This document shows positions 27,055 through 37,855 of a DNA stretch of 64,000 bases, piece by piece. Positions within the stretch are counted from its first letter, which is position 1; every line of letters begins with the position of its first letter. The translations under genes were made by a program, and so were the position numbers. A model generated the notes under the pieces. That model did not search any database. It saw only the letters and a program-made list of their open reading frames with translations, and was not told the DNA's origin. The DNA comes from Klebsiella pneumoniae (GTDB lineage Bacteria; Pseudomonadota; Gammaproteobacteria; Pseudomonadales; UBA5518), in the NCBI GenBank assembly GCA_945862145.1, contig CAMAXE010000020.1:1-64000 (forward strand), read 5' to 3'.

Positions 27055-29283
<2,229 letters not shown>

Positions 29284-30849: not shown

Positions 30850-31566
30850 TCACTCCGGCAATCGCTTCAGCGTACGCACCCGCCGCGCAGGCTTTGGCTT
30901 GGCGCCTACCGTCGTGCGCTTCAGTCGGCCGTAGGCGCGGTCCAGCCAGAGCAAAGACTCGGCGTGCGACAGGAAGTGACGCAGGTAATCCGGCGACAGC
31001 TCGCGCATCAAGGTGAGGGACCGCAGCATCAATTTGTGTCCGTTCAGCGGCCCGGCACCCTCGGGGCCACGGTCGATGGCAAGCTCCACGGCATCATCCG
31101 CACTGATTCTGGACCAAGCCTCCTTGAATCGCTGCGCATTTTTGAGCTCGGGCCACAGCTCCCCCGTTGCCGCAAGCGGAGCAGCGTCCGCGTCTTCTCC
31201 CGCAATCTCTGTGACATCACGGATATAGCGGTTCAGCACCGCCAAGGGCGCCTCTGGCGCCAGCCCCTGACCATCCGAGGGAACATCGGCCACGGCGGTG
31301 TCATCACCACGAGGGGCACCCCGTGACCGCTCAGCTACGCGCCGGGCGCAGTCGGCCAAGGCAACCCGGAGTTTGCCATGCAGGAGCCGACGCACCGCCT
31401 CGGGCGCCGCCTGCATACGCGACGCAAGCGCTTCGACGTACTGAAACAGCACCGGCTCGTATTGCGCAGCGTCCGCCTCGCGCAGAATCTGGAGCAACGC
31501 CAGCACGCTCGCCTCTGCATCCGCCGGCAGAAGTCCGGGCCCCTCGCCCGTCGCGCGTTCACTCAT
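30850..31566 (-). CDS. DUF2894 family protein
   Basis: C-terminal GPLNGHKLMLRSLTLMRELSPDYLRHFLSHAESLLWLDRAYGRLKR; start MSERATG at 31566 overlaps the OmpA stop. Family from memory. Confidence 0.75.
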   Translation of the reverse strand: MSERATGEGPGLLPADAEASVLALLQILREADAAQYEPVLFQYVEALASRMQAAPEAVRRLLHGKLRVALADCARRVAERSRGAPRGDDTAVADVPSDGQGLAPEAPLAVLNRYIRDVTEIAGEDADAAPLAATGELWPELKNAQRFKEAWSRISADDAVELAIDRGPEGAGPLNGHKLMLRSLTLMRELSPDYLRHFLSHAESLLWLDRAYGRLKRTTVGAKPKPARRVRTLKRLPE

Positions 31567-32212
31567 CGCCAGACACTCCCGCGGCGCGCGCACGGGGCAC
31601 TGGCGCCATTTCCACCCGGCGATTTCGCGCGCGGCCGGCCTCATCGCTGTTGGATGCCACCGGTTGCTCGGCGCCGAAGGCCGCACTGAACACGCTCGCG
31701 GCCGGCATCCCCGCCTCGATCAGCGCGCGTGTCACGGTGAGCGCGCGCTGGGCCGAGAGATCCAGGTTGTCGGTGAAACGCCGGTTGCCCTCGAGCACGG
31801 GTCGGTCGTCAGTGAAGCCGCTCACCATCAGCATGTCATCGCGCACACCGAGATATACCCGCAACGCCGGCACCAGGGTCTTCAACAACTGGCGGCCCTC
31901 CGGGCGCAGCGCGTCGGAGTTGACGGGAAACAGCACGCTGCCGCTGATACCGATGCGTCCGTTATCGAGCGTCACCCGGCCTGACTGCAGCGGGCCGGCC
32001 AGTGCTTGCTCCAGCGCCATGCGGCGCTGCTCCTCCTGCTGCCGCTTGGCCGTCTCGGCCGCCAGCGTGGCGCTGAGATCCATCTGCGCCACCAGCACGC
32101 CCATCAGGATCAGCACGAACACGCCAAGCAGGCCCGACATCAGGTCCCCGAACACGGCCCAGACCGGTGCGGCCTGCGCGATGCCGTCTTCGCTGTCGTC
32201 CGGATCCATCAT
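31559..32212 (-). CDS. OmpA/MotB-like protein: N-terminal TM plus C-terminal peptidoglycan-binding domain
   Basis: PVWAVFGDLMSGLLGVFVLILMGVLVAQMD (single TM with Asp) followed by an OmpA domain (LFPVNSDALRPEGRQLLKTL...GFTDDRPV...NRRVEM). Confidence 0.9.
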   Translation of the reverse strand: MMDPDDSEDGIAQAAPVWAVFGDLMSGLLGVFVLILMGVLVAQMDLSATLAAETAKRQQEEQRRMALEQALAGPLQSGRVTLDNGRIGISGSVLFPVNSDALRPEGRQLLKTLVPALRVYLGVRDDMLMVSGFTDDRPVLEGNRRFTDNLDLSAQRALTVTRALIEAGMPAASVFSAAFGAEQPVASNSDEAGRARNRRVEMAPVPRARAAGVSGDE

Positions 32213-34275
32213 CCGGCAGGTCCCTCATCGGATGCCGCCGGCCTGCCGTGCAGGCGACGCAGATCCTGGACGATGCCCTGCTGCGCACCGATGCTGAGGT
32301 CGATCACCTCGCGCGCCTGCGCCACGTAGTACGCGAGCTGCTCGTCGCTGCGCGTCATCGACTGGCCGATAGCGCGCTCGACGTGCTGCAGGCTCTCGAC
32401 CAGCTTCTCGTTGCTGGCACTGAAGAGCGCCGCGCCATGCGCGAAGGCCTCGCCGAGGGACGCGAGATCGATGGCGCTACCCGCGACTTGTACGGCCACC
32501 GCCTCGGTGCGCGTGGTCTGGATACCGAGCGTGTCAGCGAATTGGCGACCGACCTGCTCTAGCGTCCCCGAGGCAGAGGTCACGAGCGTCTCGATGGCCG
32601 CCCGTTGCTCGCCGGTGGCGAGGTGCACCGCCTGCAGCAGGGCACCGAGACCCTCGATCAGCGTGGCGCGCTCCTGCAGCGCCAGGTTGTCGCGCGCGGT
32701 GAGATGGCTCATCTCCTCACGCAGCTGCGCGATCACCTGGGCGGCGGCACGCGGCACCTCAGCCGCAGTTTGTAGCAGACGGGCAAGCGGACTTTCGAGC
32801 GCGCCACCGAGCGTGGCGAGTTGGACGGAGAGCGCGGCCTGCAGTTCGCCGAGCCGGATCACGGCCGCCTGCCCGCGCTCGGCCTCCTCGCCACGCAGCG
32901 TGCCGAGTTCGGCTCGCCACAGCGCGGCCAACTGGTCCATGCGCGCGCCCTGCTGCTCAACCCAGCGCGCCTCGGACTCGCGGTGCGAGCGCAACACGGC
33001 CTCGGACTGCTCCAGCAGGCGGGCCACATCACCCTGAATGCGAGCTGCCTGATCGCCGCTGCGTTCGGCAATGGAGGCCGCGGTGGATTCCAGCGTCTGG
33101 CACAACGCCTGCTGCCGTGCATCCGATGCGGTCGCCACACGCTCCCATTGCTCCTGCAGCGTGACGGCCGTGGACTCGAGGGACTGCACCCAGGCGTCTC
33201 TCGCCTGCTGGTCGGCATACGCCTGCTCCGCGCGCGCTTGCGCCAAGCTCTGCTGCACACCCAACAGCAAGGACGCAGTGCGCTGCTCGGCGCTGTCGAC
33301 CGATGCCTCCAGTGCGCCACCCACGCCAGCGACGAGCCGTTCATGCGCGTGGCGGGATTCCTCCGCGAGCGCCCGCATGGCGGACTCCACAACCGGCGCG
33401 ACGCTCTCTCCAGCCACCCGCGCACCGGCAGCGAGACTGTCGCGAAGGGACTGCTCCACGCTGCTCGCAAGCCCGGTGTAGGCCACGCTCGCCTCGCGGT
33501 GGAACTGCTCCTGCCGACCGAGGAGTTGTTCGTCGAGCCGCTGGCTGCGATGCTCGGTCTGCTCAATCAGTACGTGTAGCTGCCGGGCGACATCCGGCAG
33601 TACTTGCGCCTGCGATTGCAGGGCGCGATAGGTCTCCTGACGCTGGTGTAGCAGCGAAAAAGGCCGGAAAACACCAGCAATCTGTAGATCCAGCTGCTGC
33701 ACCACGGACAATCGCTCGCGGCGACTGATGACCGACATCAGCCCCAGCATGGCCGAGCTGGCCACCCCTGCCACGGAGGTGCCGAACGAAAACGCCAGCC
33801 CCTTGATGGGGCCCGCGAGCGCCTGACGTATCACCTGCAGATCGGCCGAGCCCTCCAGCGCGAGCACCGCACCCTTGAAGGTGACAACGACTCCCAGAAA
33901 GGTGCCGAGCATCCCGAGCATCACCAGCAGGCCAAGCAGATAGGGGGTGAGAACCAGCCCTGGCAAGGCAACACGCTCACCCTCGATACGCAGACCCACC
34001 GCAGCGCGCAACGACGGATCCACCCGGAACAGCCAGTCCGACAGCGCAGGCAGCGGCTGCGGCACCGCAGCCAGGGCCGCGGCAAGCGAATTCGTCTGGG
34101 CGCGAAAGCGGACAATCTCGGAGGCACCCAGCACATAGGCCGCACCGATCATCGCGGTGACGGCGAGCGCGATCACGCTGGAGCCAACGAAACCCACACC
34201 CACCCAGAGCACGGCTCCGAGCCCGAACACAAAGGCCGTGAGCACCGCAGTGATGCCGATGAGAGAGCTGATCAT
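32209..34275 (-). CDS. DUF802 domain protein, MotA/TolQ/ExbB-like with ~480-aa coiled-coil tail
   Basis: 688 aa; TM segments including LVLTPYLLGLLVMLGMLGTFLGVVVTFKGAVLAL and GPIKGLAFSFGTSVAGVASSAMLGLMSVISRRER, then a long Gln/Ala/Glu-rich helix. Family from memory. Confidence 0.85.
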   Translation of the reverse strand: MISSLIGITAVLTAFVFGLGAVLWVGVGFVGSSVIALAVTAMIGAAYVLGASEIVRFRAQTNSLAAALAAVPQPLPALSDWLFRVDPSLRAAVGLRIEGERVALPGLVLTPYLLGLLVMLGMLGTFLGVVVTFKGAVLALEGSADLQVIRQALAGPIKGLAFSFGTSVAGVASSAMLGLMSVISRRERLSVVQQLDLQIAGVFRPFSLLHQRQETYRALQSQAQVLPDVARQLHVLIEQTEHRSQRLDEQLLGRQEQFHREASVAYTGLASSVEQSLRDSLAAGARVAGESVAPVVESAMRALAEESRHAHERLVAGVGGALEASVDSAEQRTASLLLGVQQSLAQARAEQAYADQQARDAWVQSLESTAVTLQEQWERVATASDARQQALCQTLESTAASIAERSGDQAARIQGDVARLLEQSEAVLRSHRESEARWVEQQGARMDQLAALWRAELGTLRGEEAERGQAAVIRLGELQAALSVQLATLGGALESPLARLLQTAAEVPRAAAQVIAQLREEMSHLTARDNLALQERATLIEGLGALLQAVHLATGEQRAAIETLVTSASGTLEQVGRQFADTLGIQTTRTEAVAVQVAGSAIDLASLGEAFAHGAALFSASNEKLVESLQHVERAIGQSMTRSDEQLAYYVAQAREVIDLSIGAQQGIVQDLRRLHGRPAASDEGPAG

Positions 34276-34958
34276 GGCTGAGACTTCGCATCGGTGTTGA
34301 GGGCGTAGAGCATGCCGAGCAGGGGTTGCAGGCGCGTCTCGAGCTCGGCGAGCAGCGCCGCCTGCAGGTCCTGGCGAAAAGTATCGAGCCAGGCAAGGGG
34401 CAGCGGGACCAGTCCGAGGGCATCGGGCTGCTGCCGGTGTAACTGCTCGAAGCGCTCCTTGAGAAACAGCGGAACCGTGGACAGCAGTTTTTGTTCGCGC
34501 GCCCCGTAGAGCTGCTGCATCACGCCATCGAGCATTGCCAGCTGCGCCAGCGTGGGCGAGGCGGCGCTCAGGGCCTGGCGCAGACGGGCACGCAGGCCAT
34601 CGATGCTGCCCTGCATGCTGCGCTGCTGACCGAGATAGCGACGGTGATGGGGCGCAAAGCCCGCATCCGGATCCGGTTGGGCATAGGACTCACCGGCGCT
34701 GATCAGTCCTTGCAGCGAGACACGCAGCCGTCGCAGTTCCTCGGTCAACTCGGCGGCCGTTGCCCCGGCCACCGTCTCTGGAGCCGGCCCCGAGGCGATG
34801 GACTGCTGCGCCGCGTGCAGGGTGACCACGTCATGAACGCCGAGCCATTGCCCAAGGCGTTCGGCCACTTCCTGCCGTGAGGCCTCCGCATCCAGCGGGA
34901 TCCAGTTGTCGAGCAAGCGCACCAGTCGCGAGCTGCCGGCATTCCTGCGCAAAAACAC
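34272..34958 (-). CDS. DUF3348 family protein
   Basis: 228 aa; MFLRRNAGSSRLVRLLDNWIPLDAEASRQEVAERLGQWLGVHD...; heads an operon with ATGA-type overlap to DUF802. Family from memory. Confidence 0.75.
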   Translation of the reverse strand: MFLRRNAGSSRLVRLLDNWIPLDAEASRQEVAERLGQWLGVHDVVTLHAAQQSIASGPAPETVAGATAAELTEELRRLRVSLQGLISAGESYAQPDPDAGFAPHHRRYLGQQRSMQGSIDGLRARLRQALSAASPTLAQLAMLDGVMQQLYGAREQKLLSTVPLFLKERFEQLHRQQPDALGLVPLPLAWLDTFRQDLQAALLAELETRLQPLLGMLYALNTDAKSQP

Positions 34959-35136: not shown

Positions 35137-35952
35137 TCAGTTCTTCAGCGCCAGCACACCATCCCCGTTGAACTCGGTGGCAAATCCGGCGCGCCGCAAA
35201 CGCTGCGCGACCTCGGCCGGCAGGTCGCGCCCGCTGCTCAGCTTGTTCGGCGATCCGGTGTAGTGGAACACGCGTCCCTTGCGCTTCAGCACCCGCGCCA
35301 TCTGATCGTAGAAGCGCTGCGAGTAGAGATCTCCGGCGATGCCGAACCGCGGCGGGTCGTGCAGGATGGCGTCGAAAGAACCCGTCGCAAGCTGCACTAT
35401 CTCTGCTGCCACATCGCCCTGGGTCAAGGACAGGCGCGCATCGGCGCCGGGCGACCAGGGGTTAAGCGTGCGCAGCCAGATGACATCGGGGTTCAGCTCG
35501 AAAGACACCACGCGCGCGGCCTGCCCGCGCAAACACCATGCCGCGAAGTACCCCAGCCCACCGCAGGTATCAAGGATGAGTTTGTCGCGCGGGCGGATGA
35601 GACCGACCTTGCGCTCGGCATCCGCGTAGGGCGAGACCTGCGCCGTGGGCAACATCTTGATGCCGTCGATTTCAAAGGTCGGGGGGCCCCACGGCGTGGG
35701 AACGAGCTTGATCAGGGAGCCCGTGAACCGCGCCACCGGCTCGAAGCTGCCGTCTGTCCAGTAGTAAACCGTCCGGTCCTTGCAGGCCTCCATCCACGGA
35801 AATCGCAGGCCTTGCCAGGTCCAACCCGCGCTATCGACCTCGACCGTGGTGATGGATCGGCCGAGATCGAGCGAGCACTCGGCCGTCAGCGCGCCGGATT
35901 CCACGCAAGCACGCATGGCCTCGTGCACCGTCTGCGTCAACAAGGGTCCCAT
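35137..35952 (-). CDS. Class I SAM-dependent methyltransferase
   Basis: LILDTCGGLGYFAAWCLR motif I; FDAILHDPPRF motif IV. Confidence 0.85.
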   Translation of the reverse strand: MGPLLTQTVHEAMRACVESGALTAECSLDLGRSITTVEVDSAGWTWQGLRFPWMEACKDRTVYYWTDGSFEPVARFTGSLIKLVPTPWGPPTFEIDGIKMLPTAQVSPYADAERKVGLIRPRDKLILDTCGGLGYFAAWCLRGQAARVVSFELNPDVIWLRTLNPWSPGADARLSLTQGDVAAEIVQLATGSFDAILHDPPRFGIAGDLYSQRFYDQMARVLKRKGRVFHYTGSPNKLSSGRDLPAEVAQRLRRAGFATEFNGDGVLALKN

Positions 35953-36279: not shown

Positions 36280-36753
36280 TCAGGCCGCGACGCGTTCGAG
36301 AGCGCGTCGGTAGTTGCCAGCGTGACGCTCCTCTACCGTGGCAAGGGCCGCGAAACGTTTTGCCGCCTTGGCAAGCACCTCGCGGAATCGCCCGGCGTGT
36401 TCACGGGACTCGGCGATCTGCCCGTCCATCTCGGCCACCGCCGCCTCATCGCCTTCGGCAATTGCCGCAGCGCGGAAGCGCGGATACATCTCGCTGTACT
36501 CGTAGGTCTCACCCTCGATGGCGATCTCCAGCGCACGCGCGGGCGTCATGTCCGCCGGGGGGTAGAGAAGTTCGAGGTGACCGAAGGCATGCCGGAGCTC
36601 CTGCTCGGCGGTGTCCTCGAAGATCCGTGCCGTGTCCTCGTCTCCCGCATTACGTGCGAGCTTCGCAAACCAGCGGTACTTGGTGTGAGCCATCGATTCG
36701 CCGGCAAAAGCTGCCTCGAGGTTCTGCATGGTCTTGATCTCGGGTCGGTTCAT
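36280..36753 (-). CDS. Rubrerythrin family di-iron protein (no fused rubredoxin domain)
   Basis: MNRPEIKTMQNLEAAFAGESMAHTKYRWFAKLARNAG...TAEQELRHAFGHLELL; ExxH motifs. Confidence 0.93.
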   Translation of the reverse strand: MNRPEIKTMQNLEAAFAGESMAHTKYRWFAKLARNAGDEDTARIFEDTAEQELRHAFGHLELLYPPADMTPARALEIAIEGETYEYSEMYPRFRAAAIAEGDEAAVAEMDGQIAESREHAGRFREVLAKAAKRFAALATVEERHAGNYRRALERVAA

Positions 36754-36874
36754 CGTCGTGCTCCGTAGGATTGTGGGGTTGGTCGACGCAGCGGAGGATG
36801 AGCGCTTGCTCGATATCGATCCAACGAGTAATTTCTGTGATCGTGATCGGTAATTTCGATAACGGGAGAACCCA

Positions 36875-37855
36875 ATGGCCGCCCTGCCCTCGCTACGCCA
36901 GCTGCAGTACCTCGTGAAGCTCGCGGAGCTGCGCAATTTCACGCGTGCCGCCGCGGCCTGCCACGTCACCCAATCCACCCTGAGCTCCGGGCTGAAGGAG
37001 CTCGAGAGCTCGCTCGGCGCCCGGCTGGTCGAGCGCGATCGTCAGGGCGTGCTGCTCACCCCGGCGGGACAAGAGGTGGTGGAGCGGGCGCGCGGCTTAC
37101 TCGCAGGGGCCTCGGATCTCGCGCAGGCAGCCTCCAGTGCGGGCAGCCCGATGCGTGGGATCCTGCGCCTTGGCGCCATTCCCACCATCGCGCCATTCGT
37201 GCTCCCGCAGCTGCTGCAGCGCCAGCGCACGCAATATCCCGAGCTGCGCCTGGCGCTGCGCGAGGATCGCACCGAGAGCCTGCTCGAGCGTCTGGAAGAC
37301 GGGCGGCTCGACTTCGCGCTGCTTGCACTGCCCTATGACACCGGCAACCTGCTGGTGCGCGAGATCTGCCAGGACGAACTCCTGCTGGTCGCCCCTGCCG
37401 GCAGCGTGGTGTCGCCGTGGGGCATGGTTGTGTCACCGCGAGGCAATGTTGCGCTGAATGCCCGCACAGCCGAGCACTTGCTGCTGCTAGAAGAAGGCCA
37501 CTGCCTGCGCCAGCACACCCTGCAGGCCTGCAGGAGCAAGCGCTCCGGAGGCCGCACCGAAGGACTCGAAGCCACCAGCCTGCTCACGCTGGTGCACATG
37601 GCAGAGTCCGGACTTGGCCTTGCACTGGTACCCGAGCTTGCCGTGCGGCACGGGCTGCTGGCCTCCACGGGACTCACGGCGCACCGCGTCGGGCCGCCCG
37701 CACCGACGCGCGGCATCGCACTCGTGGCCCGCAGTTCCACCGCCCGCGAGATCGAGTTCACGGCGCTCGCCACGCTGATAGCGCAGGTCTGCGACGACCC
37801 GCCCGCAGCGAAAACACCACCTGCACGCGGGCGCTCACGCCCGCGCCCGCGATGA
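36875..37855 (+). CDS. oxyR: LysR-type regulator, OxyR
   Basis: LysR HTH; redox motif EEGHCLRQHTLQAC with the OxyR spacing of the two Cys. Confidence 0.88.
   Translation: MAALPSLRQLQYLVKLAELRNFTRAAAACHVTQSTLSSGLKELESSLGARLVERDRQGVLLTPAGQEVVERARGLLAGASDLAQAASSAGSPMRGILRLGAIPTIAPFVLPQLLQRQRTQYPELRLALREDRTESLLERLEDGRLDFALLALPYDTGNLLVREICQDELLLVAPAGSVVSPWGMVVSPRGNVALNARTAEHLLLLEEGHCLRQHTLQACRSKRSGGRTEGLEATSLLTLVHMAESGLGLALVPELAVRHGLLASTGLTAHRVGPPAPTRGIALVARSSTAREIEFTALATLIAQVCDDPPAAKTPPARGRSRPRPR

What the first reader, a model, noticed from the sequence alone, without database searches (positions are those of the whole stretch)
30850..34958. Motor-like four-gene operon (DUF3348 - DUF802 MotA/ExbB-like - MotB/OmpA-like - DUF2894) of unknown function
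Seen: four minus-strand genes joined by short stop/start overlaps (34272/34275, 32209/32212, 31559/31566). The 688-aa protein has MotA/TolQ/ExbB-like TM segments (LVMLGMLGTFLGVVVTFKGAV; GLAFSFGTSVAGVASSAMLGL) followed by a ~480-aa helical tail. Its partner has one TM carrying an Asp (FGDLMSGLLGVFVLILM) and an OmpA peptidoglycan-binding domain. Established: a MotA-like protein with a long tail plus a MotB/OmpA-like protein is the layout of ion-driven stator motors such as Zorya ZorA/ZorB. Inference: this may be an ion-driven envelope motor with two dedicated accessory proteins in place of the Zorya nucleases, possibly for defence, envelope maintenance or signalling. From memory the DUF families co-occur in proteobacteria without an assigned function; this needs checking.
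Basis: partly seen in the sequence, partly recalled or inferred. Interest (0 to 1): 0.85.

Follow-up and report, generated by a model that had tools for sequence, protein, structure and literature searches.

The report
Zorya type III anti-phage motor operon
Four adjacent bacterial genes encode a known but poorly understood anti-virus system (Zorya type III), a membrane motor anchored to the cell wall that probably detects an incoming phage; the find is ordinary as a type, though how its two helper proteins stop the phage is still unknown.

Summary
The four genes are real, at the stated coordinates, and overlap as described. The operon is not "of unknown function": all four proteins match the PADLOC models of Zorya type III (ZorA3 3e-227, ZorB3 8e-105, DUF3348 1e-62, DUF2894 2e-51). 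That four-gene system was named in 2021, and one member was shown to protect E. coli from phages. The motor residues are intact: ZorB Asp23 is invariant in about 80 relatives, and the ZorA Thr/Ser ring positions are invariant or nearly so. All four genes keep the same order in 73 of 79 related loci. The operon sits alone among metabolic genes: same site in three congeners, another site in a fourth, and not in a defence island.

Two small additions. Both accessory proteins are predicted all-helical, with no match to a solved fold and no nuclease signature. The ZorA tail varies in length almost only in its middle; residues 601-660 never gain or lose a residue in 81 proteins and carry a near-invariant motif, a plausible docking tip. 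New member of a known kind; modest interest.

The parts
34272..34958 (-). DUF3348 protein, 228 aa (ZorF in Payne 2021; labelled ZorG3 in PADLOC-DB). First gene, GTG start; all-helical accessory subunit
   Evidence: Pfam DUF3348 4.6e-56; PADLOC 1.1e-62; AF2 model pLDDT 87, eight helices
32209..34275 (-). ZorA3 motor subunit, 688 aa: N-terminal hydrophobic segments, TM pair 112-182 with invariant Thr125, Thr132, Pro156, Ser167 and near-invariant Thr166, ~484-aa helical cytoplasmic tail, conserved tip 639-662
   Evidence: PADLOC ZorA3 2.9e-227; profile's best match in PDB is 8VVN ZorA; conservation
31559..32212 (-). ZorB3, 217 aa: one TM (about 19-42) carrying invariant Asp23, linker, OmpA/MotB peptidoglycan-binding domain 94-198
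   Evidence: PADLOC ZorB3 8.5e-105; NCBIfam NF006547 9e-104; alignment A4; hydrophobic segment 24-42
30850..31566 (-). DUF2894 protein, 238 aa from ATG 31566 (ZorG in Payne 2021; labelled ZorF3 in PADLOC-DB); all-helical, conserved C-terminal GPLNxH...LSPDYL motif
   Evidence: Pfam DUF2894 8.9e-45; PADLOC 2.4e-51; AF2 pLDDT 77, pTM 0.43
32290..32361 (-). Tip of the ZorA tail (residues 639-662, SMTRSDEQLAYYVAQAREVIDLSI), proposed docking site; region 601-660 has no length variation in 81 proteins
   Evidence: docking itself is inference

Best explanation
The operon is a complete Zorya type III anti-phage system, gene order DUF3348-ZorA-ZorB-DUF2894. ZorA and ZorB very likely form a 5:2 ion-driven motor in the inner membrane. 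ZorB's OmpA domain grips peptidoglycan, ion flow past ZorB Asp23 and the ZorA Thr/Ser ring turns ZorA, and the five ZorA tails form a long rod in the cytoplasm. By analogy with types I and II, local damage or pressure on peptidoglycan during phage DNA injection switches the motor on, and the moving rod recruits or activates the effector at the injection site. In type III the effector role falls to the two helical proteins DUF3348 and DUF2894, which probably dock on the conserved tip of the tail. Shown here: family membership, intact motor residues, co-conservation, accessory folds without a recognisable nuclease, fixed-length tail tip. Shown by others: phage protection by a type III member (PMC8565338), and the structure and the need for ion flow, tail and peptidoglycan binding in types I and II (PMC11890865). 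Inferred: activation in type III, docking at the tip, and how phage is stopped. My estimates: type III membership 0.97; motor mechanism shared with types I/II 0.85; accessory docking on the tail tip 0.35.
For: All four PADLOC Zorya III models matched at 3e-227 to 2e-51. The ZorB profile matches solved Zorya I ZorB over its full length, TM included: 8VVN_B profile positions 6-200, 8QYD_F 7-199. The ZorA profile's best solved match is Zorya I ZorA 8VVN_C, 5.7e-7, through the TM pair with GTF and TS motifs aligned. ZorB Asp23, Trp18 and Phe21 are in 79 of 80 sequences, the last having a gap; ZorA Thr125, Thr132, Pro156, Ser167 and Ser174 are in 81 of 81 and Thr166 in 79 of 81. Same four-gene order in 73 of 79 loci; every one of 8 class genomes with DUF3348 has ZorB3 about 2-3 kb away on the same contig. 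Phage protection by a type III member, and loss of defence in D24, tail and PG-binding mutants of types I and II.
Against: No type III complex has a solved structure that I could find; the 5:2 stoichiometry is by analogy. Type III ZorB has Phe133 where types I/II have the peptidoglycan-site His (GFTD for GHTD; invariant), so its binding may differ in detail. The operon is not near other defence genes here and sits at one fixed site in three congeners, which is less mobile than many defence systems. No phage assay exists for this copy.
Confidence: 0.85

Rival explanations
1. A housekeeping envelope motor (Tol-Pal or Ton-like maintenance or signalling) that also happens to affect phage when over-expressed.
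For: Same chromosomal site among ordinary metabolic genes in three congeners; no defence island in the window or next to relatives; flanks in other taxa include gyrB and other core genes.
Against: Patchy distribution: 8 of 369 genomes of the class for DUF3348, 6 of 50 order-mates outside the genus, not found in one of six congeners and at a different site in another. Published phage protection in a heterologous host. A core envelope machine would be far more evenly spread.
Confidence: 0.1
2. Type III stops phage without any nuclease: the motor itself, or DUF3348/DUF2894 used as a plug, depolariser or DNA-entry block, is the effector. (This is a rival only on the effector step, not on identity.)
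For: Neither accessory protein has a nuclease match in Pfam, NCBIfam or PADLOC, nor a solved relative by sequence or by fold; both are predicted all-helical.
Against: Foldseek misses novel catalytic folds; the DUF2894 model has low pTM (0.43); DUF2894 has invariant Asn175 and near-invariant His177 that could be catalytic. Types I and II work through ZorD/ZorE nucleases.
Confidence: 0.35
3. The accessory proteins only regulate ZorAB, which kills the infected cell by ion leak (the proposal of Payne 2021).
For: Proposed by the discoverers for ZorF/ZorG.
Against: Later work on types I/II points to nuclease effectors recruited by ZorAB; not tested for type III.
Confidence: 0.2

Closest known systems
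Zorya type III (Payne et al. 2021, PMC8565338)
   Same: All four genes, gene order, family models, motor residues, long ZorA tail
   Different: No difference found that would take it outside the type; ZorA is 93% identical to the nearest congener, 53-68% to the others and about 33-60% to relatives elsewhere
Zorya types I and II (ZorABCD, ZorABE; PMC11890865)
   Same: ZorA/ZorB motor core, Asp in the ZorB TM, OmpA domain, helical ZorA tail
   Different: No ZorC/ZorD or ZorE nickase; DUF3348 and DUF2894 instead; PG-site His replaced by Phe; ZorA similarity to type I only about 22 bits over the TM pair
Flagellar stator MotA/MotB, PomA/PomB
   Same: Ion-driven motor logic, OmpA domain in the B subunit
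   Different: Long helical C-terminal rod in the A subunit; no flagellar gene context
ExbB/ExbD and TolQ/TolR
   Same: Same broad superfamily of A subunits with the TM pair around a B-subunit Asp helix
   Different: Here the B subunit has an OmpA domain and the A subunit a ~480-aa tail

Membership tests
Zorya type III | ZorA3 (MotA/ExbB-like with long helical tail) | tested here: met
   PDLC00648 2.9e-227, residues 11-682
Zorya type III | ZorB3 (one TM with Asp, OmpA domain) | tested here: met
   PDLC00651 8.5e-105; Asp23 invariant
Zorya type III | DUF3348 protein in the operon | tested here: met
   PF11828 4.6e-56, PDLC00658 1.1e-62
Zorya type III | DUF2894 protein in the operon | tested here: met
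   PF11445 8.9e-45, PDLC00652 2.4e-51
Zorya type III | Protects against phage | not testable with these tools
   Shown for the S. nitritireducens member only (PMC8565338)
Zorya type I | ZorC and ZorD in the operon | tested here: not met
   Neighbours are an FAD oxidoreductase, a methyltransferase and a rubrerythrin; no ZorC/ZorD match
Zorya type II | ZorE HNH nickase in the operon | tested here: not met
   No ZorE match in the operon, its neighbours or the other window proteins scanned
Flagellar stator (MotAB) | MotA sequence family for the A subunit | tested here: not met
   No MotA family match for the 688-aa protein; the OmpA half matches MotB models only below their cut-offs
5:2 ion-driven rotary motor (mechanism class) | Asp in B-subunit TM plus Thr/Ser ring in A-subunit TMs | tested here: met
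   TM-pair alignment to Zorya I ZorA. Which Thr/Ser face the Asp is inferred from that alignment
5:2 ion-driven rotary motor (mechanism class) | 5:2 assembly and rotation | not testable with these tools
   Needs multimer modelling, cryo-EM or a single-motor assay

The most novel reading that the evidence does not exclude
Zorya type III is a nuclease-free Zorya: two all-helical proteins of new fold dock on a fixed tip of a length-variable ZorA rod and stop phage by a physical or membrane-level mechanism rather than by cutting DNA.
Probability: 0.3. Interest if true: 0.65.

Novelty: new member of a known kind. Interest (0 to 1): 0.3.

Why it matters
The system type is published, so this copy adds one more member, from a gammaproteobacterial genus. 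What remains open is how type III works without ZorC/D/E. The evidence narrows that question: no recognisable nuclease or known fold in either accessory protein, and a near-invariant ZorA tail tip as the obvious place to test for docking. If the effector is not a nuclease, Zorya motors would be general sensors to which unrelated effectors are attached.

Tried and rejected
Searching the own genome for Pfam DUF802 found nothing, even at the operon itself, because that 53-residue model covers only a piece of the coiled tail; absence by that model is meaningless. Single-sequence PDB search with ZorA returned only coiled-coil look-alikes (apolipophorin, tropomyosin); a family profile was needed to reach Zorya I ZorA. 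Foldseek on both accessory models gave no match at E<=0.001; the top full-length helical-bundle hits have low TM-scores with very large rmsd and were rejected. An empty-site comparison in congener G003 failed: neither of the two flanking genes tried (FAD oxidoreductase, MarR) was found at E<=1e-20 and its catalase-peroxidase is only 59% identical, so 'absent' there rests on a 93% complete draft. Recurrent neighbour genes: none in more than 7 of 85 loci. A simple sigma-70 scan found no promoter. The main structural paper on Zorya I that I looked for is not held.

Full report
What is there. The finding's coordinates and overlaps are right. On the minus strand the genes run DUF3348 (34958-34272), the 688-aa motor protein (34275-32209), the OmpA/MotB-like protein (32212-31559) and DUF2894 (best start 31566, end 30850). 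The overlaps of 4, 4 and 8 nt suggest one translationally coupled transcript. No sigma-70 consensus promoter was found, which says little.

What it is. All four proteins match PADLOC models of one published system, Zorya type III: ZorA3 2.9e-227, ZorB3 8.5e-105, DUF3348 1.1e-62, DUF2894 2.4e-51. NCBIfam gives a weak match of the motor protein to anti-phage ZorA (0.00041, below cut-off) and a strong match of the OmpA protein to NF006547. Payne et al. 2021 (PMC8565338) named this type from 6,401 loci, cloned the Stenotrophomonas nitritireducens operon into E. coli and saw reduced plaquing. Mariano et al. 2025 (PMC11890865) solved types I and II as 5:2 motors and showed that the ZorB Asp, the ZorA tail and peptidoglycan binding are needed; they mention type III but do not study it. 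I found no paper in the held library on how type III works. A naming trap: the 2021 text calls DUF3348 ZorF and DUF2894 ZorG, whereas the PADLOC-DB labels used here are the other way round.

Motor residues. Across about 80 relatives ZorB Asp23 is invariant apart from one gapped row, and ZorA Thr125, Thr132, Pro156, Ser167 and Ser174 are invariant, with Thr166 in 79 of 81. The ZorA family profile reaches the solved Zorya I ZorA 8VVN in the TM pair, with the GTF and TS motifs aligned. The ZorB profile reaches Zorya I ZorB (8VVN, 8QYD) over its whole length, TM included. In the peptidoglycan domain Arg156, Arg194 and Arg198/199 are invariant, but type III has an invariant Phe133 in place of the His that types I/II need (the correspondence is read from the G[HF]TD motif).

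The tail. From residue 205 the tail is 484 aa here, median 517 in 81 proteins, range 374-610. Segment 205-300 hardly varies in length (sd 2.6). Segment 301-460 carries most of the variation (66-284 aa, sd 40), segment 461-600 some (sd 19). Segment 601-660 shows no insertion or deletion in 81 proteins and ends in a near-invariant stretch, family consensus SDEQLAYYVAQAREIIDLS. The tail has a helical hydrophobic periodicity of about 3.6 residues. I read this as a rod of free length with a fixed functional tip; that the tip docks DUF3348/DUF2894 is inference. The alignment behind these numbers was an automatic MAFFT run, so lengths are approximate.

The accessory proteins. DUF3348: AlphaFold2 with 80 sequences gives pLDDT 87, pTM 0.83, eight helices, no strand. 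DUF2894: pLDDT 77, pTM 0.43, all-helical, so the domain arrangement is uncertain. Neither has a solved relative by sequence or a Foldseek match at E<=0.001. No nuclease, helicase or NTPase family matches either protein (the only other hit, DUF3348 to a Cmr3 model at 0.015, is chance level). DUF2894 keeps invariant Gly172, Pro173 and Asn175 and near-invariant His177, so a novel activity cannot be excluded.

Distribution and context. Loci found by ZorA similarity carry all four genes in the same order in 73 of 79 cases; four of the other six run into contig ends. That set is biased to close relatives. An independent draw of 369 class genomes gave 8 with DUF3348 (own genome included), all 8 with ZorB3 about 2-3 kb away; two further genomes have ZorB3 without a detected DUF3348. 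In the order outside the genus 6 of 50 genomes have ZorA. In the genus five of six have it. Three (G001, G004, G005) show the same neighbours as the window (FAD oxidoreductase, KatG, thiolase); in G002 it lies beside RND-efflux-like and short-chain dehydrogenase/hydrolase-like genes instead; in G003 it was not found. Relatives occur on large replicons of Burkholderiales and Azoarcus (27 plasmid records) and in no phage record. The rest of the window, and 80 proteins flanking 24 relatives, are mostly metabolic or core genes with almost no defence-model matches (no control set was run, so this is not an enrichment test). So this is a lone cassette, spread horizontally in the long run and stable at its site in most of this genus, not part of a defence island.

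Verdict. The interest lies in the unsolved effector step of type III.

Noticed in passing
window 27055-29283: Catalase-peroxidase KatG whose first ~30 residues look like a cleavable signal peptide ([20 protein letters not shown]), suggesting a periplasmic KatG; found at the same place in congeners.
   Followed up: partly
window 36280-37855: Rubrerythrin gene divergent from a LysR-type (OxyR-like) regulator next to the Zorya operon, present beside it in the closest relative but missing at that place in G004 (L096).
   Followed up: no
window 35137-35952: SAM-dependent methyltransferase upstream on the same strand, weak match (8.5e-11) to the PADLOC 'mad2' model; probably a generic methyltransferase match; not detected at the Zorya locus of congener G004.
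   Followed up: no
L095 (G002:C79): Within the genus the gene-by-gene identities are mosaic: G002 ZorA is closer to the window (68%) than G004 ZorA (56%), but its DUF3348 and ZorB are further (53% vs 64%, 77% vs 85%), suggesting recombination inside the operon.
   Followed up: no
PADLOC-DB models PDLC00652-00658: ZorF/ZorG labels in the database are swapped relative to the 2021 paper's text.
   Followed up: yes
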